DNA from: Siphonodentalium dalli | Lineage: Eukaryota; Mollusca; Scaphopoda; Gadilida; Siphonodentaliidae | Direction: 5' to 3' | DNA: 64,000 nt | Assembly (NCBI GenBank): GCA_032622095.1 | Contig: CP136069.1 | Location: 128,135,123-128,199,122, forward strand | Part shown: positions 13,756 through 35,500 of the stretch, piece by piece | Numbering within the stretch: position 1 is the first letter of the stretch | How the letters are laid out: each line of letters opens with the position of its first letter | Position numbers and translations under genes: made by a program | The notes under the pieces: generated by a model | Told to the model about the DNA's origin: nothing | What the model saw: the letters and a program-made list of their open reading frames with translations, nothing else | Database searches by the model: none

Positions 13756-14028
13756 TCACTGAGCGTCCACATACTGCATGGTTGTATTTTGGAACTTGCC
13801 CACAAGTGCTGACAGATACCATTGCCCATGGGATACCATATGAAACTTACCATCTGACGACAGAGGCTTCAATAAGGTATTTTCTATGCATCTCTTCAGA
13901 ACATTCCAGGCTCTGGGGTCGTTGACAAAGGTACCGTATGGTTCCATATTCTCTACAATTCCACTGGAGGTGTCATTGGATCGGAATGAAACTTCGTTGC
14001 CATAGCGAGTAGTATTAATCATTTCCAT
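13756..14028 (-). CDS. Unrecognised 90-codon open frame
   Basis: A frame from ATG 14028 to a stop near 13756 encodes a soluble-looking peptide with no low-complexity bias, containing DPRAWNVLKRCIENTLLKPL. Just upstream, CGTCACCAG could be a splice acceptor, so it might be a last exon. I recognise no family, see no signal peptide or membrane segment, and no neighbouring exon could be identified. It may equally be a chance frame. Confidence 0.25.
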   Translation of the reverse strand: MEMINTTRYGNEVSFRSNDTSSGIVENMEPYGTFVNDPRAWNVLKRCIENTLLKPLSSDGKFHMVSHGQWYLSALVGKFQNTTMQYVDAQ

Positions 14029-14135
14029 GGTTACTGGTGACGTTTAACTCCGTATCACATTGTTCAGCATGAATGGTATCTGCTGGAAAGAAAAGCCTCC
14101 AATGAATCACAAGGGCTTGTTACAAGCTCCGTTAA

Positions 14136-21440: not shown

Positions 21441-21449
21441 GGACGGACG
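21441..21449. other. Left 9-bp target site duplication
   Basis: GGACGGACG immediately before the left end CAGTCGAC of the 14-kb transposon; the identical 9 bp follow its right end at 35492-35500. The sequence is itself a GGAC repeat, which weakens the evidence slightly. Confidence 0.75.
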
Positions 21450-22292
21450 CAGTCGACATAAATTTCGACTCAGTATATCATATAAATTCATCTGAGTCGA
21501 ACAGGACTGGCCGGAATTCTATTTCCAGACTTGGGGATATACCAGGGAATTCCTTGTTTTGATTGGAAGCGGTACCAGAAAGCGATGGCCCCGATTAGCT
21601 AACCGATAACAGCTGCGCGTGTCCCGTAAAAATAGCCCAGTTATCACCATAAACAGGTGTGTATATTGATCTAAATTTAAATACTGGGCGGAGCGAAGAG
21701 ACGAGAAATTTTCATTTGAGCATGCGCACACATTGACAAATAAGCTTCCTGTTCAAAATATTTTTTTAAAAGAAAGACATTATTCATCGGTAAAACTCGT
21801 TTTCGACGCTTTTAATAATCACATCACAATAGGAAAATGAGTGTTACAGTGGACAAAGACCGAGACAATGTGTTAGTGAAGTGTGTTTCGTCTATCTTGA
21901 AAGAGACAGTTATTTCAGAGTTGAAATCTGAACAATTTCAAGTGTTGTCGGCAATATTCGTAAACAGGTGTGATGTTTTGTGCATTTTGCCGACTGGTTT
22001 TGGAAAGAGCCTTCCGCACCAAATATCACCATTTATTTTGAGGAAAATGGCTAACGGTGAACATTTCAAACAATACAGTGGAATGCATTTGATCATTGTG
22101 GCTCCTCTTAAAAGTTTGATGAGGGATCAAGTCAGCAGAATGGAGAAACTGGGTGTGTCCGCTGGATTTATTGGACAATCAGAGGACATTGATAAGAAAA
22201 TTGCAAATGGTGAACTTGAAGTCGTGTTAGGTAAGTCAGTATATTTTAGACTAATAGTTTAAAATAAACGGAAATATATCTCATCGGACAGG

Positions 22293-22472
22293 CTCTGTTC
22301 CGTTTAATATTGCACCATACAGCCTACATAATTGGCTACGGCTGAAGCAAACTGGGCCACAGCATACGTAGTGTTGCCGTAGCGGATTGCCGAAGCCAAA
22401 CAATCTGAATTAAGAGGGCTGCACCATACAAATTTTTCACCACAAATATGTATGGTGCAATACGGAACAGAC
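22293..22472. mobile_element. Small MITE in helicase intron 1
   Basis: TCTGTTCCGTTTAATATTGC plus ACCATAC at the left is matched by GTATGGTGCAATACGGAACA plus GA at the right. The interior has smaller inverted pieces such as GGCTACGG / CCGTAGC. Non-coding. Confidence 0.75.
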
Positions 22473-22793
22473 TACAGTGCAGATATCGTTTCGTTTATTT
22501 TGAACTAATTTAGACTTGTCCAAATCACTAATCAGTTATTTAAATTTGTATTTGCAAGTGAACAACTTGAACTAGTAGCCCGATTCCCCAGACAGGTGAA
22601 TCGTGTATTAAAGATTCGTGTTATGAACTATATATTAGTATTCACAGACCTGCCCAAAGAAACGAGCCTGCTGAATAAACGTGCTGGCTTACATTTACCC
22701 CTAATAATTATTAATAGTGCTGGAATTTTCACTATCATGACCAATTAAATTAATATTAAAATTAATAAACGTGCCAGGCTGCCAGCTTGTTTT

Positions 22794-23928
22794 CTATGGG
22801 AGGCCAAAATTCACATTTAATAATGAATTGCGCTTGAGCGCAATTGATTGCGTTTAAGCGCAAATACCACATATTGTGCTTAAGCTCAAATAGGGCATTT
22901 ACGCTTAAACGCAATAAATTACGCTTAAGTGCAATCAATTGCGCTTCAGCGAAATTGTGACTACTATCTAACCTACCTATAAACTATTAGCATGACCTGG
23001 TGTATCACCTAGCAACAAGTGATGAGCATTGGGCTAATTTTGACCTGTGCTCAACAGTCAACTATGAGTATGTGTTCAACAAGGAGAATCCCTAATTACA
23101 TATTATCAACATCCCTCTATCCAAAGAATTTATGTCGCCTTCCCGGAACTCTAGTAATTTTTTGTATGATGTTTTTAATGTATTTTTGCACATATTTTAG
23201 CCTTTACTATGGTAATATCCTATACATGCATGCGGTGTCACGACATGAGGGCTTTCTTACCTCATACAGTAATGCTCTAATTAATCGACTTCTTAACCAC
23301 AGCAGAATTATGGGTAACTTTTCAGGATTTAGTCGGAAATATGACTTGTTGCCATTCATCGAAAAGCTCTTGAGAGTCGATTAATTAGAGCATTACTGTA
23401 TGATTTACTTATTGACTTAAATCAGGGGGAAAAAACCCTATTTTCATATTATCAGCATCCCTGTCCAAAAAATGGTGTGTAATTACTGGAGCTTTGGTGT
23501 CTCAGTCCTGGAGCTCTAGTTTTTCTTATTAAATCAGCATCTCATGCACAAATCTATAGTATTTCCATGATCATATAGTGTGAATGTGGTGTCACCGAGG
23601 GCTTGCTACCCTCATATGGTGTGCCTGTATACTCGAAAATTGAAGAAAATCAATGTTGCCCCGACTAATACAGAAAGTAATGCTATTGCGAGTAGCCCCA
23701 ACTAATATATACAGAAGATAATATAATGCTATCACGAGTCGCTCCAACTAAAACAGAAGGTGATACCGTACTATTGCGAGTCGGCCATTTTGATAACGGA
23801 GTTGGGCTAGCTCCCTACCCATCCAAACCAATGAAACCAAGAGGTGACATGTCAATTGATTGCGCTTAAGTGTAATTATTTGCGCTTAAGCACAATTAAT
23901 TATTAAATGTGAAATTGGCCTCCCATAG
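22794..23928. mobile_element. 1.1-kb MITE with TGCGCTTAAGCGCA arrays in its arms
   Basis: The left end CTATGGGAGGCCAAAATTCA with CATTTAATAATGAATTG and the right end, inverted, CTATGGGAGGCCAATTTCAC with CATTTAATAATTAATTG form arms of at least 60 bp. Both arms carry repeats of the self-complementary motif TGCGCTTAAGCGCA, with more copies on the left (22829-22950). TTTT flanks both sides and may be a 4-bp target duplication. It interrupts helicase intron 1 and itself contains a mariner-type MITE at 23277-23398. Confidence 0.8.
23277..23398. mobile_element. Tc1/mariner-type MITE (CAGTAATGCTC)
   Basis: The ends CAGTAATGCTCTAATTAATC and GATTAATTAGAGCATTACTG are perfect inverted repeats flanked by TA. 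The interior TTAACCACAGCAGAATTATG and TTCAGGATTTAGTCGGAAAT are shared with the element at 29551-29675. TA target duplication and CAGT ends suggest the Tc1/mariner group. Confidence 0.85.
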
Positions 23929-26331
23929 TTTTCTGGCATCCAAGAGTACATACATGTGTATATAATACATTGTTATTAGTACAACACACATGTTGTTCAT
24001 GTATGTAATTTGTAAACATATATACACATTATTTATTATTGGAATAGTTAGTCAAATTGTAAATGCTTTATACGTGCTTAAAAGAACACAGTAGTAAATG
24101 CACATGAACTGACTCCACTGAGTGAGGTCAACATGGGTGATGATCAATGATATTTATTATTGTTATAAAACATGAGTTCACATTACTGAACATCTTGCTA
24201 TTTTTCACATAATTGAACGTTGAACACTTTCATTGTAGGCAGCCCAGAAAGTTTGGTTGGCAACAACAGATGGCGTGATGTTCTTTTAGACAAATACAGA
24301 GGAAAAGTCCTGTGTATCGTGGTAGATGAAGTACATACAGTTGCTAAATGGTGAGTTCATTGAAAACTGTTGGAATCTGATATTAATGGCAGATCATATC
24401 ATCATAAGAACATTTTCACACGACGTTGAACATTACTAGTATTGTTCAGTACAGGGGGGGGTATTAATAAAAAATAGTACCCATATGTGCATCAGACCTC
24501 GAGAGTACAGTTACATGTTCACTAAGTACACATATGTAAGTTACTGACTTACTGCGTCTTGTATTGATGTACTCTATACATTGTCAATTTTGTCATATCT
24601 GGTGAGGTTAGAACTATATCAGGTGAGGAGCCAAGTTTTATAGTATTTATTAAATTTGTATTGTGAAAAGGTAAAGTATTAGCAACTATTCGTCAACTAA
24701 TTTATTTATTAAATCTTTGAAATTATTCAAACATATTTTTAAATGATCATTACATGTAATACATGATAATCATAAGGGTTATTAAAATATAGTTTAATAG
24801 TTTTGATTTAGTATAATTGATGGAATCAGATGGGTTAAACAATTCAGCGATTACTTTGAGGTGGGAAAACATTATCTTTTTTTTAAAAGGTGGAAGACAC
24901 CCAATTTGATTTTATGTTAGGTTATTTGAAATTTAATATGGGTTAACCAGTTTAGTTGCTCGTTAAATTACCTAATACAGTGTTATATACACCCAATCAG
25001 AATGTGTGACACAGTGCCTGATGGTGTATTCCATTTAACATACAATCGGTGCAATGGCACTTCCAAGTTTCATGGCCTATTCTGTGATAGACTTCCAAAT
25101 TGAAAACAAAACTGATATGTCAGATGTGTAATGTTTATTTATATTTTCTTTCCAGGGGAGAGAAACAAGGTGGACAATCTAACCCATTTCGGGTGTGGTT
25201 CAGACATGTTAGTGAACTTCGATCAGTTCTGCCAGATGTTCCCATCCTATGTCTGACGGCAACAGCATCCCTGCAGACACAGAAAATTATTAAAAACTCG
25301 TTAGAGTTAGCACATGATGTGATGGTGATTCAGAAGGATACCGATAGGTCAAATATTAAATATATGGTGATGCGATGCAGTCCGAATGTCGGGGAAAATC
25401 TGTTCTGGCTTGTTGACCTCATCAATGACAACAAGATGAACATCGACACGATACCGAGAATGATTATTTATTGTTCATCAATTCTTAAATGTGGCAATAT
25501 CCATGACTTTCTATTGAAGGAGTTGAGTGAAGAGTTAAAGAAAAAAAACTTCCTTGCACAATTCCATTCGAAGACTGAAGAACCTGTCAAAGAAGATATT
25601 TTGGAATCAGTGAGTGAATCCGATAGTCCACTGAGAGTAATTATTGCAACAAGTGCGTTGACATGAAGGGGACATTCTTAGCACTTCATTATGGTCCACC
25701 AGATGATGTTGACTGCTTCGTGCAAGAAACAGGTCGAATTGGAAGAGAGGGACAACCTTCGCTCTCATTGTTGATGTTTAATGGGTCGATGCTGAAAACA
25801 TGTGGTGAATCGATGAAAGACTATGCAAATAACAACACTGAATGCAGGCGGATATTCTTCCGATTGAACATCGACTTCACATTTTTAATGAACTTTCAGG
25901 GTCAGACACTGATCAATCATCATCGACATCATCATTATCATCAACAGAATAAACGATATTGCATCAGTGATTTATTGAATTGTATACTACAAACGTATAC
26001 ATGCTGTAAAAATTGTTTTAAATATATAACATTCAGTCAATTGAATAAATGTGAAAGGGCTTTAAGCCTTAAGACACGTACATATTTTTTATTGTGTAAC
26101 TACTCAACGATTCGACTAGCAATTTTATTCCATTTTGACCGACAAAGATGTTCTCCAAAGTGGATTGAACATTTCTGACAGGCAAATGTAATAATTTATT
26201 ATAATTATGATTCCTATGCCATTCAATATTGATTTGCCAACTACCGGTAGTCTGTTTGTACAATGTACAAACTTGACGATAAATTCAGATTGTTTCAATA
26301 ATCACTGCAGCTGTCGGATATGACATGATGC

Positions 26332-26415
26332 TCAGGGTCCGCGCTGGACCGAAATTTACTTTTGCCAAATGAAAATATTTTTTGCCAAATTCTGTTAGAA
26401 TTTGCCAAATGTTAT
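26332..26415 (+). repeat. GCGCTGGACCGAAA / TTTGCCAAAT element copy
   Basis: CAGGGTCCGCGCTGGACCGA is followed by three TTTGCCAAAT units. It matches loci near 16840-16990 (inverted) and 18687-18765. It lies inside the Academ-like element just downstream of the helicase gene. Confidence 0.6.
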
Positions 26416-26509
26416 CATTGATGCTTTGTTAACAGAATACATACTCTCTGGTGCCAAATAAATATGTTGGCTGAGTTAAAGCGCCGACATATTTCTGTAA
26501 AATTATTAA

Positions 26510-26849
26510 AGGGGTAGTCCGAACTCGAAGCTAAAAAAATAATCTTGTTTGCAACAGTTCAGTGGCTAAAATATTAAAGAAAATATCTACTATGAGTCAA
26601 AGTTCGGTAAAATAACCAAACTATGGCATAATGTATACTGTTGGTGATATAGCACTAAAATAATAAATTGCGGATCTGCAACTTGTTATTTCAGTGCTAC
26701 ATGTATATCAGCAACGTACATCATGCAATATTCATGTTTATTTTACAGAACCTTGATGGGTGGTATATATTTTCCTCAATATTTTAGCCACTGAACCATT
26801 GCAAACAAAATTGTTTTTTTTCACAAAACATTATGCTTCGATTGACCGT
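26510..26849. mobile_element. TTAA MITE (AGGGGCAGTCC family)
   Basis: TTAA 26506-26509 is followed by AGGGGTAGTCCGAACTCGAA. The right end, GCTTCGATTGACCGTTTAA, is a worn inverted copy with TTAA at 26850-26853. The interior includes CAGTTCAGTGGCTAAAATAT on the left and ATATTTTAGCCACTGAAC inverted on the right. Relatives lie at 31453, 33932 and 34122-34607. Confidence 0.8.
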
Positions 26850-27068
26850 TTAACATTGATGCCATTTAGATGATATGCATATATCATGACCAAATAATAG
26901 TACTGGGCAACAATTTCTTCCAAATTTGATAAACATGATCGCACGTTTATAATTATTTGGCACCCAAATCGCAAATGTTGTGTTCATTTGCATGCGATAG
27001 TATCCAGACATATGTGTATCATATGCATGCATACATAGGGTAGATTAATATAAATGAAGTTCACATGG

Positions 27069-27414
27069 CTTTAATTGTTCAATTGGCCCCATATCCTATT
27101 CTGATCCCAAATATTTTTTATTTAAAAGCTATTTGGAACGAGTAGCTAACAAAACGCATCTGCGGTGCCTCGAAAATTCAGCGATGGGAAGTCAAAATAA
27201 AATTAAAACCAGGTACCTTAATTCTAAATAAAATCATTTTAAGGCGAGGGATTTCTTTAATTTCTAGAGACTTTTAGGCTACGCATAATATACAAAATAA
27301 CATGTATATATATTATGTTTTCACACCTATATATACAACCACAAGCAACTCGTTCCTAACTGCTTTAAACAAAATAATTTGGTGGTCCGAATGTGATGTG
27401 GGCCTTTAATTAAA
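27069..27414. mobile_element. MITE between the two transposon genes
   Basis: GGCCCCATATCCTATTCTGA near 27085 and GGCCCACATCACATTCGGAC (inverted, from about 27404) form imperfect arms extending through TTATTTAAAAGC / TTTGTTTAAAGC to GGAACGAG. The exact ends and target duplication are uncertain, though TTAA lies close to both sides. Confidence 0.6.
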
Positions 27415-28602
27415 CCAATGCGAAAACCAGGCTTAGTTACAATTCTGTTTTTGCTGTAACAGAAAATCATTAAACTCTGCAGCATTGACTTCAAAGATGT
27501 TTCTCATGTCACTCTTGATGTTTTTGTAGGGTTTTCGGCCAGCAACATGTTGCATAAGCCGTCTGTCCTTTATGTCAGACATTATTTGTTTAACACATTT
27601 TTCTCTTATTGGCCGCGCATGAAATCCCATTTTCCTCTTTACTGAAGATACTTCATCAAAGTTTTTGTTGATTTTTCGAATTGCGTCGAAGGCCTTTGAA
27701 AGGGTTTGGCAAGATTTGAAGTCTTTACTTCCTTCACAGTCACTTTTCAAATCACGATTTATCAACTCGACCCAACCATCAATAGATTCATTTGATGATT
27801 GTCCTCCTTTTATATTAACTGTTCTGTTCCATGTTAATCGAAATGATGTTTCTGCTGGTAACAAATACTCCACAGACGCGATTAATTGAAAGCTGGAGAG
27901 GCAATATTTAAATTTCTTTGTCATGTTGAAGAGCAAAATTTCGAACTTGGAGAGTCTGACATTGCGCTTTCCATCCCCATCATCGATACTTGTCTGCAGG
28001 TTGAAATAAATAGCCGAAATGGTGAATAACGCTTTCTGATAGCAAAACACCTGGTCATCTTGTGGACTTTTCTTTATCTTTTTTGTTTTTGGTGGAATGA
28101 TTTGTTGGTGTTGTTTTTTTTTGGTGATTTCTCAAGGCAGACAGATTAACATACGAACGAGTGCAATCTTCAATTTTACATTCAAATTTATTCTGGTCAT
28201 TCAAATTGAGAACATTGTTTGACTCCAGTTGGTGTAGTTCATCCCGGAGCTTTCCAAACAAGTCTTCAGAGTTATCAAATACAAATGAATCCACAATTTC
28301 TAGAGAAGAAATCTCCAAAAAACTCAGAAGTTCAGAACTTTCCATGGTCACTAATCTATCTGGTAGATCATCGACCAAGCTATCCATTCCTAATTTTGAC
28401 AAAAATAGTTCGCAGCACATTGCATCAAATATAGTCTGTAAAAAGTTTTTACATGCCCTTAATTTGCTTTTTGGTTTGTTTGAAACATCATGGGCTTTCA
28501 ATTCATTTTTGTAGTATACCAAACTACCGACATCACCAGCAGAATTGTCCTTGTAGAAGATTTTCCATATTGCCTGAAAGAACATTATGAATATATGTAT
28601 AT

Positions 28603-28648
28603 TCAGATGAATTTATATGATATACTTAGTGGAAATTTATGTCGACTG
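28603..28648 (-). repeat. Inverted copy of the transposon's left terminus
   Basis: Read on the minus strand from 28648 this is CAGTCGACATAAATTTCCAC followed by AGTATATCATATAAATTCAT, closely matching the left end at 21450-21495. It lies just upstream of the last transposase exon. The flanks do not duplicate the 9-bp site of the large element, and no partner right end was found. Confidence 0.75.
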
Positions 28649-28649
28649 C

Positions 28650-28912
28650 TCCAAGCCTTGAAATAGTGTGTCTGTCATTTGCAGAATGAGGTCCCCAGAG
28701 GGTGAATTTAGTGATGCTACCCCGCATAGCGGGCTAGGAACACCAAATTCACCCTCTAGGGACCTCATTCTGCTTACAACGCAGCAGAATGAGGTTCACA
28801 GAGGGTGAATTTGGTGATGTTAGCCCGATATGCGGGGTAGCATCACTAAATTCACCCTCTGGGGACCTCATCATGCAAATGACAGGCACACTATTTCATG
28901 GCTTGTTCGGCT
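28650..28912. repeat. Nested hairpin (GAGGTCCCCAGAGGGTGAAT)
   Basis: Outer arms CAAGCCTTGAAATAGTGTG and CACACTATTTCATGGCTTG enclose GCAGAATGAGGTCCCCAGAG with GGGTGAATTTAGTGATG and its inverse. Two internal copies of the same module face each other, so the sequence can fold as one large or two small hairpins. It lies in the intron before the last transposase exon. Confidence 0.85.
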
Positions 28913-29148
28913 CCAGCGAAAAGTGACCATGCCATTTCAGCAAGTTGTATAAAGTGCTTCTCCATTCCAACATGCATCACATTCTGTATTTATTACACAC
29001 CCCATTTGAAATAACAGTTTTTCATTGAATTGAACGAAAAAATATATTTCCCAATAAAAAGCACAATGTATATAACTGTAAACAAATAATGTCATGACTC
29101 ATACTACACATTTTTAGTGGTTATAACAGGATATAAGATATATTATAC

Positions 29149-29293
29149 CGTATGTTAATAAATATCCTGTAAGTCTCACATTTATAAGGATTAAATGGGT
29201 TGATAGTGCCATCCCAGAGTTCATACAATTGAGTGTGTAGAATGAGATTGTATATGGACTGCAGGATGGCAATATCGGCCCATGTAATCCTTC
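29149..29293 (-). CDS. Possible unplaced exon, 48 codons
   Basis: On the minus strand TTGATTTATAG precedes, and ACG|GTATAA follows, an open segment reading RITWADIAILQSIYNLILHT then QLYELWDGTINPFNPYKC. Its composition looks protein-like, but exon 5 and the last exon of the transposase gene join in phase without it, so it may be an alternative exon, an exon of a lost gene or chance. I do not recognise the peptide. Confidence 0.3.
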
Positions 29294-29550
29294 CTATAAA
29301 TCAATAACATGATTGTTACCCCAGGTGGATATTTGATATCAAAATATCAGATAATAATCGAGAGAAAATATGTTCCAAAAATACTGCGAACATGCATTAA
29401 GAATTACAGACTATTGAAATTATCACATTCATATGCTACTTAATGCAATGGATGGATACCGCAGATTAAAATATATAAGCTACTTTTAACAGTAACACAT
29501 TGTTCATCCCTAACAGTACACTAAACAAGTGGAATAATATATCTGATCTA

Positions 29551-29675
29551 CAGTAATGCCCAAAGTAATTGACCACTTAACCACAGCAGAATTATGACCA
29601 TATTTCCGACTAAATCCTGAAAAATTACCCATAATTCTGCTGTGGTTAAGTGGTCAATTACTTTGGGAATTACTG
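29551..29675. mobile_element. Tc1/mariner-type MITE (CAGTAATGCCC)
   Basis: A near-perfect palindrome: CAGTAATGCCCAAAGTAATT at the left and AATTACTTTGGGAATTACTG at the right, flanked by TA. The interior TTAACCACAGCAGAATTATG is shared with 23277-23398, but here it is present on both arms. Confidence 0.9.
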
Positions 29676-30068
29676 TACATGCAGACACACATGGCCGTGT
29701 TAACTTTTAACACAGGATTATAAGATTATTTATTTGCTCTGGATGAAATATGGATTAACATTCAACCTTTCCAGCCGAAATTAAATGGACAGCCAATCGA
29801 CGGGTGCGCTTCTCAGTCAATACAAAATACGCTCTCATATTTTGGATGTAACTGACGAATCAAATGTCTAGATTCGTACTACTGGTGTACAACATAAAAT
29901 ATATTTATCGCATAGTTATGACTAATTTCATAATCCCATAATGTAAATATTGTTGATGTATACATGTATTTATATACTCACATTGATGTTTCCTTGTCAA
30001 CCTTATATTGACACGGCAATAAATGTATATAATAGTTGTATCCGCTGAAGTTGGAACACCCTATTTTA

Positions 30069-30137
30069 CAGTCGACATAAATTTCGTCTCAGTAATATCA
30101 TAGAGTGGAATTATTACGGAGATGTTCGCGTCGACTG
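30069..30137. mobile_element. 69-bp deletion derivative of the Academ-like element
   Basis: The left part CAGTCGACATAAATTTCG and CTCAGTAATATCATA match the left end of the 14-kb element; the right part GGAATTATTACGGAGATGTT plus CGCGTCGACTG matches its right end. It is flanked by a perfect 9-bp duplication CCTATTTTA (30060-30068 and 30138-30146). It lies in a transposase intron. Confidence 0.92.
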
Positions 30138-31452
30138 CCTATTTTATAGGTCTTGTCCATTTTATTTAGTTTATAGACTTACATCTAAATTATTCATGCT
30201 TCTGTGGAGATCCTCTGATTTTGGTATTAACCCATCAAGCTTTTGAAGAGGGGTAGTTGTCTCTTTTAAACTAGCCATACACCTCTTTGCTCCCTGCGCC
30301 CGTTCATCGGTTAGCCAGTCACCTCCTAGGAAGATAGGCTCTATGGTTTCAGTGCCAGGTGTGCTCACTTGTGGAGTGAACTCTTTGGTGAGTGTCTTCA
30401 TGAGCTCAATCATATCGGCAGTCTTTGACTCATTTATTTCTTCCAAGCCCAGGACATACTGAAGAACAAAATTTAAAAGTATTTAGTCAACATGTTGTAT
30501 TATCTCAAAGACCGCCCAAAAGAAACATTGATGTTAATATATTTCTACATCCAATCATCCATAAACTCATACTGATCAACCAAATAGTAATTTCTGCTGT
30601 CTTAGAGATATATAACAACCAATATAGAGGATCTCCTAACAGGTACATGTAACATTTCAGTTTTCAAATTAGAAGTTTGATAAAATTGGAAGAGAGTGAT
30701 TTAAATTTATTAAACTTATGTCAGTCTATAAATTGTCAGATTACTTTGTGTACACAGTACACCATTGATACTGATTTTGTTATTATAATAAAAATGTGTT
30801 CTTATCCTAATCCATGGACTCGTCATGATATGGCCTAGTTGCTAAAGTGACTAATCAATCCTAATCCATGGAAGTTTTTATGCGACAAATTGAAATGGTG
30901 TGATATATTTATTAGTTATAATTATTCTTCACATGTACCAGGTTCACAAATAATTATGTAAATAATGTCTGAAATAAGTTTACCTGTTCAGACTTTTCTT
31001 CATTGCGTCGGCCATTGGATTAAAGTATGTCTCTGGAAAGGCTGTTTTTCTTGACTTCAGAAGCTTCGTTAGTTGAGGCATGTATTCTAGTGTTCTAGAT
31101 ACTATCAGATATGCTATCTCAGATGTCACGAGTATTTGGTCTGTTTTTGATGGTATCCACTCAATATTCTCATGCAGGCGAATCTCCTTAAGTGGTTGAA
31201 TACATTCCAAGCCATCACCCTTCACACGATCCACAAGCAAAACGCTGTTGAAGAAATGTTGATCATCCACTCGTCTATCCGAAGTGAGATATGTCGGGAC
31301 GATTCTCCTGTCCCAATTGTCACCGGCCAGACTGTATTTCTTGAAATCTGGTGATGGTGGTACAGATGTGACTATCCTGCAAATAAATGTCATTGACAGC
31401 ATGTCATATTATGGAAATTTCGTCCAAAACATGAAAACATTCCCAATTTTAA

Positions 31453-31585
31453 AGGGGCAATCTGGACTAGAAACAACACAATTTGAAAAAATAGTGTTAT
31501 TTGAAACGCTTCAGTGGCTAAACATATTATACCACACGCATGTTGTATGTTGGTGATATAGCACTGAAATAATATATACATGCAC
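31453..31585. mobile_element. Partial TTAA MITE (AGGGGCAATCTGG)
   Basis: TTTTAAAGGGGCAATCTGGA followed by CTTCAGTGGCTAAACATATT and GTTGGTGATATAGCACTGAA matches the left half of the 26510 element. The right arm is not found. Confidence 0.6.
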
Positions 31586-32180
31586 AAATTTTATTTAGAG
31601 TCTGGACTAACCCTAGACTATTTAAAAAAAAAATCCATGTATTTGTTGTATTATTGCCAGTAGATATATGGATTACTTTAAACATATTTTAGTCTGGTGA
31701 GCATGACTGTACTTGTGTATTGTTAAGGACTTGGGGCATATTCGGGTGTAAAGAATTTTCCATCGTTAACTAAGAATTTATTCTTCCTCAATTATCCGAT
31801 CTTGTGAAATCACGTTTGCTGGAATGTAAATTACATTAGTTAGTGAAGTTATACAATACTTACATTCCTGAATTGTTTTCACATGATCTTTTCAAAGAAG
31901 ATGTCCATTCGGTGACTAATTTGTCTACTTCTGCAAATTTTCGTCCAGCAATCGCCTTGATCTTAGCATTCGAAGTCTCACGTGTTACACAAAATCCTAT
32001 CTTTTGTAGACGCTGCTGGGCCTAGAATGATATTCAACAATATGTAGAATGACATTTAACAATATAATGAGATGATAAACATCTTGACACCTAGATGCGA
32101 CTGATGCATTATAGAACATACAATTTACGCCTACATGCATTTATGAACATGTAGGTGACATTGTTGTGTATAGTCATATG

Positions 32181-32940
32181 CAGTCGACATAAATTTCGGC
32201 TCAGTATATAGAGGATATGAAATGAGTGTTTCTCTCATATGATATTTATGAAACGAGTCTAAGAATTTTCAGTTTTCTCGAGCCTGTGGCGAGAGAAAAC
32301 TTAAAATTCGTTTCATAAATATCATATTAGAGAACACGAATTACATATTCTAGTTATCATATGACACCTATAAATTTATTATGATGTCCAAATGATGTCC
32401 AAAACGCACACAAATCACTAAATAGCTATATGACATTGGCAGCAAAAGGTTAATGTGACGTCACTTCATTGCACCGGAAGCCCAATTACACCTGGTGAAC
32501 TAGCAGAAATAATATGCACGCAAAGATATAGTGCACTATTCTGTTCTCAGTTTGTGACATTATATCGTATGTTTATTAGATCAATACGAATTACATATTC
32601 TATTTATCGTATAACAATGTCCAAAACTATATATTTCAAGATTATAATTGCGAGTATTTCGGCATCGCGTTAAGTCGTGTATTTGACGCGCACGAATTTG
32701 ACCTGCATTTAGTCAGAGATGCGGCTCGGCCCCCGGCTGCCATTCAGAACCCACTTTTTATCAACAAACCAATCAAATTATCGGAAGGTGATATGGACTA
32801 GTAGTCCATATGAAATTGATTTATGACATACATGTAGTTTCCAACGTAAATAATGATTGAGTCGCATGATCAATCAGTATATCATATTGATTCATTTGAA
32901 TAATATTGGAATTATTACCGAGATGTTTACATCGACTGAG
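32181..32940. mobile_element. 760-bp non-autonomous Academ-like element
   Basis: The left end CAGTCGACATAAATTTCGGC and right end CCGAGATGTTTACATCGACT plus G match the large element's ends. Flanks AGTCATATG and AGTTATGTG agree at 7 of 9 positions with only transitions, consistent with an older 9-bp duplication. The interior contains a hairpin at about 32234-32330 (ATATGATATTTATGAAACGA and inverse) and no recognised coding sequence. It sits in the intron between transposase exons 2 and 3. Confidence 0.87.
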
Positions 32941-33931
32941 TTATGTGTGGTTTCATATAAACATTTGAAATAAGGTATGATGTCCAAATATATCTCAGCA
33001 TTTGATATTTCAAAAGCAATTTCAATTTAGATGTCTCCGAAATAAAAGAAACTTCGTTTTGAGTTTGTAAACAACGTAATCAATTGAAATGTAAAGTGTA
33101 CACATGGGTGTTCTAAAGTATTCTAAATACCTTGGAGCTGCATCCACCATTACTGAGGATGATACCCGTCATGTGCTGTAGTAGATTCATTTGCATATTT
33201 CTATGCCTCAGAGCAACTGCTGCTGTTGTTGAAACTCGCCTCCTATTAACATTGTCCTGTGTCGATCATCCCACAATAGCACCAAGAATTTTACATAGAG
33301 TGGGTGCTACAAGTTCAAGTTCATCATAAATTTTGTCCCATTGAAAGGTGAATAGGGTCTCTATGTCCTTACTTCGCAGAATTGAATCAGTGTTTTTCGA
33401 ACATATTTTGATGCATTCTTTGTTTAGAATGGTGCAGAAGTGTTCGATCATTTCTCTTTCGCACAAAAGAGAACATTTCTTGACCAGGCCCATATGATTT
33501 TTGTACACCATCGATGAAATAATGCTCTGTTCCACTGGATCCACTATGGTGAATTCTCTCTTTTTCGAAGGATAGATGAATGTGACCTGAAATTGCAATG
33601 TTTTATATTTATTTACATCATGTTTTTTTATAAATATAAAACAAATTTAATATAGATATAAATATTAGTGTTATCATACATTGTATACAATATAAATCTA
33701 TCTACATTTATTTATAGGGGTGTAAAATAAACAGTGGCCTACATGCATATAAAGGGCTACATATACAAGAACAGATATACTGTACATGTAAATGGGGCTG
33801 CTTAAATATACATGAGGGTACATACAACTCGATACAATTTTGTCGCCTTCGTACATATCAAAATGTGCCAAATTAAATATTTGTTTGAATTATAAACATG
33901 ATCTTTTTAAGAATTAAATGCAAAATATGGT

Positions 33932-34110
33932 TGAAGGAGCATTCCGGGCTCAAAGCAAAACAATTTTGAAAAAATAATCTTGTTTGGAACAGTTCTATGG
34001 CAAAATATATTATGGAACCTATATACCACGTGTCTGTAAAATAACAAAAATATTGCATGCTGTATGTTGCTGATATAACACTAAAATAAGAAATTGCTTT
34101 ATAGATTATG
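33932..34110. mobile_element. Partial copy related to the AGGGGCAGT MITE
   Basis: GGAGCATTCCGGGCTCAAAG with AATAATCTTGTTTGGAACAG and TTGCTGATATAACACTAAAA corresponds to the left half of the adjacent 34122-34607 element. Its end has diverged. Confidence 0.5.
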
Positions 34111-34121
34111 AAATGATTTAA

Positions 34122-34607
34122 AGGGGCAGTACGCACTCGAAGCAAAACAAAATGAAAAACAATATTGTTTCGAACAGTTCAGATGCTAAAAATATTAAAG
34201 AAAATATACACCATCAGTCAAATATCCGAACAATTACCAAAATATCACATAATGTATGTCGGTATACGACTGTGAAATTGTATTTCACAACACGTAGTGT
34301 TATATGTTGTATTTATATGAACCAATAAAGAGCTTTTCTCACTGTATTAATACAGTCGTAAATAGAACAAACCGTATATTAATGAAGCTATATATTGATT
34401 ATGTGTCTCAAATTTGACGCTAGTAAGTCAGATTCCTCTTTCTCTTGCTTTTATATACGCCAGATCAGATATAGCATAGTAGCGTCGGAGACAAAATCGG
34501 AATTTGATGGGTGGTATATATTTTCCTTAATATTTTTATCCACTGATCCATTCCAAACAAGATAATTTTTCCTATTTTTTTTTTGCTTCCGAGTGCGTAC
34601 TGCCCCT
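34122..34607. mobile_element. TTAA MITE (AGGGGCAGTACGCACTCG)
   Basis: The ends AGGGGCAGTACGCACTCGAA and its inverse TTCCGAGTGCGTACTGCCCC (plus T) are flanked by TTAA at 34118-34121 and 34608-34611. Arms extend through AAGAAAATATACACCATCAG / TTGATGGGTGGTATATATTT. It lies in transposase intron 1. Confidence 0.9.
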
Positions 34608-35491
34608 TTAATGATGCCATGTAAACAGTGAGTTACAGTGTATACAAAGAGGAGAATACTCACTTTTCATCTGTTTTTTCCCCAAATTCCAGACATTTTT
34701 TCGCTTTCGGTTTTTTCTTTTCTTTCATTGGAGTCTTTATCTTGGTTGTAATGTCTTGCAGTTGTCCGAGTCTCAACCGTGGACTGTCAGTTGTCGTACC
34801 AACACTTTGAATTCGGTCACACAATAGGTTGGTGAACGATTTCAGAGGTGTCCTTTTAATTGTTTTGAGTTCCACAGGAATATTTTCAGAACCTTTTTCA
34901 AGCTCCAAGGAAATCAGTTTATTTTTCTTTGCACATTGCCCATCTGTATACGGCGAACGCAATAGTCGTTTAACTCGGTCATGTGGCACTGATTTAAAGT
35001 TAGTTTTAATAGTTGTATTGATTTTGACCAGCTGCTTCATCAAAGAAAAACACTTGTGACAAATGGCATGATTCTGGTCGGCGGCGAAATAACCGGTGCC
35101 GATATTCAGTGTTCTGTAAATCTCTGCCTCTCGTAACATTCCAATACAACCTTCCGTTAAAACATGTTTATTTTTTATATTATGTTCCAATCTTCCAGTT
35201 TTTGTAACATGAGTCCCTTCAAAAGAATAGTCGCAAAGCATACATGATTTAATTTCACTTTTTAAAATAAATTTAACAGGTGTCGGTACCGACGCCATGA
35301 TTCCGGAAGCAAGCTTTACTTTGTTTACTTAAATTGATTGACGCGCATAAATTATTCCTTGTTTGGAATGTCTGCGACATCAGTATGACGTCACGATATT
35401 GGGGGGAAGCCCACAGTTCTGGAAATGGGTTTTTACATGAATTCGTGTCGACGTAATATTATAATTATTACGGAGATGTTTACGTCGACTG

Positions 35492-35500
35492 GGACGGACG
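35492..35500. other. Right 9-bp target site duplication
   Basis: GGACGGACG directly after the right end GTCGACTG, identical to 21441-21449. Confidence 0.75.

What the first reader, a model, noticed from the sequence alone, without database searches (positions are those of the whole stretch)
21441..35500. A complete 14-kb helicase-plus-DUF6589 transposon with exact ends and 9-bp TSD
Seen: CAGTCGAC...GTCGACTG ends, identical GGACGGACG flanks, and two convergent genes that fit just inside. Known: transposase plus SF2 helicase pairing defines AcademH-type elements (from memory). Inference: the DUF6589-like protein is the transposase. The family boundaries are corroborated by two small elements with the same ends. 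An element with both genes and both ends in one window is unusual and would define a consensus.
Basis: partly seen in the sequence, partly recalled or inferred. Interest (0 to 1): 0.92.

Follow-up and report, generated by a model that had tools for sequence, protein, structure and literature searches.

The report
Helicase-carrying DNA transposon, complete but broken
A 14-kb DNA transposon in an animal genome carries its own cut-and-join enzyme and a RecQ-type DNA helicase; relatives in the same genome confirm its exact ends and 9-base target duplications, and some of them look like scars left by incomplete DNA repair.

Summary
Window 21450-35491 (14,042 bp) is a structurally complete DNA transposon with CAGTCGAC...GTCGACTG ends between GGACGGACG repeats. 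The left end occurs 386 times exactly in the genome, 0 for the reversed control. Of 20 copies fetched, 19 pair with a right end and 9-bp flanking duplications of 14 different sequences. Uninterrupted satellite units give empty sites that fit 9 bp and no other length from 6 to 12. Inside are two convergent genes: a RecQ helicase and a DUF6589 protein, whose oyster homologue is predicted to fold like P-element, hAT, ISCth4 and RAG1 transposases. Both genes are interrupted in this copy. A second family has the same layout, open exons, 14.2 kb and 9-bp duplications. Helicase plus 9- or 10-bp duplications is what is reported for AcademH, so this is most likely a new AcademH family; Academ phylogeny could not be tested. 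Unexpected: copies of 61-136 bp at 20 sites, with 19 different internal junctions crowding at subterminal inverted repeats, some with filler DNA: probable scars of aborted gap repair.

The parts
21450..35491 (.). whole transposon, 14,042 bp
   Evidence: ends and flanks; same ends genome-wide
21441..21449 (.). left target-site duplication GGACGGACG
35492..35500 (.). right target-site duplication GGACGGACG
21450..21501 (+). left end with subterminal inverted repeat (nt 15-24 TTCGACTCAG / nt 43-52 CTGAGTCGAA)
35447..35491 (-). right end with subterminal inverted repeat (nt 36-45 from the end GTCGACGTAA / nt 3-12 TTACGTCGAC)
21837..22230 (+). RecQ helicase exon 1 (Walker A GFGKS at 21996)
   Evidence: splice sites predicted
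24239..24350 (+). RecQ helicase exon 2 (DEVH motif)
25156..25666 (+). RecQ helicase exon 3 up to an early stop (TGA 25664-25666)
25657..25899 (+). continuation of helicase similarity in another frame
   Evidence: 37% to the open helicase of family 2
34664..35298 (-). transposase exon A (N-terminal CxxC...CxxC)
   Evidence: 26% to family 2
33131..33586 (-). transposase exon B with in-frame TGA at 33266-33268
31864..32021 (-). transposase exon C
30984..31376 (-). transposase exon D; first catalytic Asp (GDNWD) at 31319-31321
30183..30458 (-). transposase exon E, DUF6589; second catalytic Asp (GGDW) at 30318-30320
   Evidence: (E 8.5e-8)
28124..28573 (-). transposase exon F, ending in a C2H2 finger; frame change near the F/G border
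27433..28131 (-). transposase last part (G), DUF6589; probable catalytic Glu (DGWVE) at 27766-27768
   Evidence: (E 3.8e-11)
30069..30137 (+). nested 69-bp element of the same family, duplication CCTATTTTA
32181..32938 (+). nested 758-bp element of the same family, flanks 7 of 9 identical
28603..28648 (-). orphan 46-bp left end, no partner found
   Evidence: (I10)

Best explanation
A cut-and-paste DNA transposon of the AcademH kind. The minus-strand DUF6589 gene encodes the DDE transposase, which acts on the CAGTCGAC...GTCGACTG ends and makes 9-bp staggered target cuts (shown as 9-bp duplications; enzyme activity inferred). The convergent plus-strand gene encodes a short RecQ helicase, whose role is inferred: most likely to help repair synthesis refill the donor gap from the sister chromatid after excision, so that the element is not lost. 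This copy is an old, immobile one with both genes interrupted; hundreds of short copies depend, or depended, on other transposase sources. The 61-136 bp copies are inferred to be donor sites where gap repair was aborted and the two short stubs were end-joined.
Confidence: 0.85

Rival explanations
1. Same element, but the 61-136 bp copies are self-mobile mini-elements rather than repair scars.
For: All 32 have both ends and duplications with at most one mismatch; L094 and the ATAATTATA group share a junction at different sites; family 2 also has a 62-bp copy with exact duplication ATATGTACC. MITEs under 120 bp are known for Bari (passage).
Against: 19 different junctions at 20 sites; a moving mini-element should repeat its junction. 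Fillers copied from the element (L104, L105, read by eye) are typical of break repair.
Confidence: 0.25
2. The helicase-DUF6589 element is a transposon lineage outside Academ (for example nearer P, hAT or Kolobok) that acquired a helicase independently.
For: Best structural matches are P-element and hAT transposases (no Academ structure was in the list); no paper in the library mentions DUF6589; KolobokH also carries RecQ (passage).
Against: The 9-bp duplication with a helicase matches AcademH as described. [quoted passage not shown] here it is a separate convergent gene.
Confidence: 0.15
3. The true element is 7.2 kb (21450-28648, bounded by the inverted left end) and the rest is unrelated DNA.
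For: Inverted 46-bp left end at 28603-28648.
Against: Flanks GGACGGACG and CTCCAAGCC do not match; it would cut the DUF6589 gene; family 2 has the whole layout in one 14.2-kb unit.
Confidence: 0.02
4. The breakpoints of the short copies mark transposase-protected ends rather than a stall of repair synthesis at the inverted repeat.
For: Both would leave about 46 and 38 bp.
Against: None decisive; both readings need a break inside the element.
Confidence: 0.3

Closest known systems
AcademH DNA transposons (Kojima 2020; paper not held, known here through PMC10045372)
   Same: helicase gene; 9-bp duplications (9 or 10 bp reported); DDE-type transposase
AcademX
   Same: sister lineage by report
   Different: 3 or 4 bp duplications and a nuclease; here 9 bp and a helicase
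KolobokH
   Same: RecQ helicase in a DDE transposon
   Different: [quoted passage not shown] here a separate convergent gene in an animal, 9-bp duplications of varied sequence
Ds/P internal-deletion derivatives made by abortive gap repair (Rubin and Levy 1997, seen only as a reference)
   Same: internal deletions with intact ends and duplications, filler DNA
   Different: here reduced to about 46 plus 38 bp, with breakpoints at subterminal inverted repeats

Membership tests
AcademH | encodes an SF2 helicase | tested here: met
   also family 2
AcademH | 9- or 10-bp target-site duplication | tested here: met
   criterion
AcademH | DDD/E transposase fold | tested here: met
   on a homologue (P0003); conserved D160, D310 (nearly invariant) and E623 (invariant). 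Middling Z
AcademH | transposase groups with Academ transposases by sequence | not testable with these tools
   no Academ sequences in the libraries used; Kojima 2020 not held
AcademX | 3- or 4-bp target-site duplication | tested here: not met
AcademX | XPG-type nuclease | tested here: inconclusive
   no such hit in the 9 exon pieces scanned; the rest of the element was not scanned
[quoted passage not shown]
   convergent genes; criterion
KolobokH | TTAA target site (recalled) | tested here: not met
   9-bp duplications of varied sequence

The most novel reading that the evidence does not exclude
The element-encoded RecQ helicase is a donor-site rescue factor: it drives repair synthesis past subterminal inverted repeats after excision. 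Where it fails, both nascent ends stop at the inner arm and are joined, leaving a solo-ends scar of about 46 + 38 bp with an intact 9-bp duplication. Such scars would be a permanent genome-wide record of past excisions.
Probability: 0.3. Interest if true: 0.72.

Novelty: new member of a known kind. Interest (0 to 1): 0.5.

Why it matters
It ties an unnamed Pfam family (DUF6589; no paper in the library searched mentions it) to a transposase fold and to real ends and empty sites, so many uncharacterised mollusc proteins can be named. Why a transposon should carry a RecQ helicase is open; the short scars with breakpoints at inverted repeats give a concrete, countable readout for testing a role in gap repair.

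Tried and rejected
A 7.2-kb element ending at 28648 was rejected for lack of matching flanks. A 5-bp duplication was rejected because the other copies and empty sites show 9. Transposase cutting at the inner motif was considered for the scars and set aside: it could place left breakpoints but not the right ones (reasoning, not computed). Profile search of the PDB by sequence gave only zinc-finger and chance matches; NCBIfam gave nothing useful; Foldseek alone gave no match at E 0.001 or better. The 14-kb copy's own empty site: joined flanks had no spanning match in the window, and the genome search did not complete. A genome-wide list of short copies was sought and never answered, so the 20 sites come only from two chromosomes. 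A genome search with the helicase did not complete. Weaker empty-site-like matches were seen for L062, L069, L071, L003/L011 and L028 at 79-92% identity and are not counted as proof.

Full report
What is there. The window lies in a 2.23-Gb genome of 9 contigs, held without a name. At 21450-35491 is a 14,042-bp element that begins CAGTCGAC and ends GTCGACTG, with GGACGGACG on both sides. Beyond the first 8 bases the two ends are only partly alike. The left end is not chance: 4 matches to its 18-mer in the window against 0.04 expected, and 386 exact matches in the genome against 0 for the reversed control. A right-end pattern has 420 matches against 0.

Are the boundaries right? The flank by itself is ambiguous because of its 4-bp period. 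I fetched the first 20 listed left ends. 19 of 20 pair with a right end whose next 9 bp repeat the 9 bp before the left end: 14 exactly, 4 with one mismatch, 1 with two. The 20th (L016) had no pair in the stretch fetched; a right end lies 5.9 kb away by the coordinate lists. The 19 show 14 different duplications, several copies sharing host flanks and so probably copied with their surroundings. GGACGGACG is therefore not part of the element. The 557-bp copy with duplication CAGAATGTC sits in a tandem satellite, and joined flanks match the uninterrupted units: for assumed duplications of 6, 7, 8, 10, 11 or 12 bp there is no ungapped spanning match, for 9 bp there are 51 of 53, four of them perfect. 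The empty site of the 14-kb copy itself was not reached.

The genes. On the plus strand three predicted exons (21837-22230, 24239-24350, 25156-25666) give a RecQ-family helicase: DEAD domain E 3e-16, best PDB relatives WRN 1e-18, BLM 7e-17 and a bacterial RecQ 1e-16. It stops at 25664-25666, and similarity goes on in another frame from about 25657. On the minus strand seven stretches (A to G, 35298 down to 27433) match, in order, the exons of an open relative. Two of the nine pieces scanned, both from this gene, reach Pfam's cut-off for DUF6589 (E 8.5e-8 and 3.8e-11). This gene has an in-frame TGA at 33266-33268 and a frame change near the F/G border; predicted phases also disagree at A/B and D/E, which may be wrong splice sites or further damage. 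So the copy is complete in structure and broken in coding.

Relatives in the genome. The last transposase exon finds 36 matches; the window copy is the only one at 100%, and the other 35 are 23-62% identical (counts are lower bounds). One at C4 was read in full: a 14,193-bp element, CAGTCTGAGTGAAC ends, duplication GGTGACATG, with the same exons A-G and a convergent RecQ helicase, frames open; its spliced protein scores 112.9 bits for DUF6589. A scan of 8-10 bp duplications gave this pair and one weaker 8-bp candidate. Three other copies are 98-99% identical over their longest aligned pieces, so this family moved recently. One of them has duplication TATATTTGT; for the other two no right end was in the stretch fetched.

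The helicase lineage. The open family-2 helicase finds 380 proteins at E 1e-20 or better, 120 listed. The best are short RecQ proteins of Saccostrea, hemichordates (Ptychodera, Saccoglossus, Glandiceps) and Haliotis, mixed with unnamed ones; bacterial RecQ follow at about 1e-30.

Short copies. By coordinates on C1 and part of C2, 71 of 93 left ends pair: 27 under 200 bp, 2 at 217, 38 at 480-618, 4 over 1 kb (duplicated host segments included). The L009 type of about 550 bp is made of pieces 1-231, 309-509 and 13888-14042 of the 14-kb element. For the shortest class I examined 41 loci: 32 are under 200 bp, 3 are 552-618 bp, 6 had no pair in the stretch fetched. The 32 fall on 20 different duplications, 17 exact and 3 with one mismatch. 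At these 20 sites there are 20 different sequences and 19 different junctions; L094 shares one with the ATAATTATA group. Left breakpoints lie at nt 37-46, nine of them at 46; right ones at nt 25-40. The left end has an inverted repeat at nt 15-24/43-52 and the right end at nt 3-12/36-45; 15 of 20 left and 12 of 20 right breakpoints lie in the inner arm. L105 carries a filler that copies left nt 25-46, and L104 one with pieces of helicase exon 1 and of the right region (read by eye). In the window, 30069-30137 is such a copy, and the orphan left end at 28603-28648 stops at nt 46 too. Family 2 has a 62-bp copy with exact duplication.

How it probably works. Shown: ends, 9-bp duplications, empty sites, two genes, their families, internal-deletion derivatives. 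Inferred: the DUF6589 protein cuts and joins; each excision leaves a gap; repair from the sister refills it; when repair stops early the stubs are joined, giving a short scar. In flies, blm mutants show more aborted gap repair and shorter synthesis tracts (PMC8951532, passages), so a RecQ helicase carried by the element could serve to finish this repair. That last step is a proposal without direct evidence.

Known or new. AcademH is reported to make 9 or 10 bp duplications and AcademX 3 or 4, linked by the author to helicase and nuclease (PMC10045372, passage). The original paper was not held. Bivalves are rich in Academ (PMC10294476, passages; no match there for helicase, '9 bp' or DUF6589). 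I therefore call it a new family of a known kind, most likely AcademH, with the superfamily placement untested.

Noticed in passing
window 28652-28905: A nearly perfect 123-bp inverted repeat (91% complementary, 8 nt between arms) directly beside the orphan left end, inside the E/F intron; probably another MITE.
   Followed up: no
window 23265-23403 and 29546-29680: Two related inverted-repeat elements inside the 14-kb element's introns; the second has 51-nt arms 96% complementary.
   Followed up: no
window 26530-26820, 31448-31577, 33930-34257, 34502-34611: A dispersed repeat with AAGGGGCA...-type start, four partly inverted copies within the element.
   Followed up: no
window 22807-23916: Cluster of TTGCGCTTAAGCGCAA-like palindromic units bounding about 1.1 kb in helicase intron 1; similar letters occur in an intron of the family-2 element (by eye).
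   Followed up: no
L063-L068, L076, L095-L099: A repeated host segment carries the same short insertion (duplication ATAATTATA) on C1 and C2, so insertion and host segment have multiplied together.
   Followed up: partly
G000 C4:228.80, C5:224.61, C6:169.54 and C6:56.41 Mb: A recently active 14-kb sister family, 98-99% identical over the longest aligned pieces, with open exons in the copy read in full.
   Followed up: partly
L004/L012 (C1 about 6.02 Mb): Tandem satellite with a unit of about 90 bp, interrupted by a 557-bp copy; gave the empty sites.
   Followed up: yes
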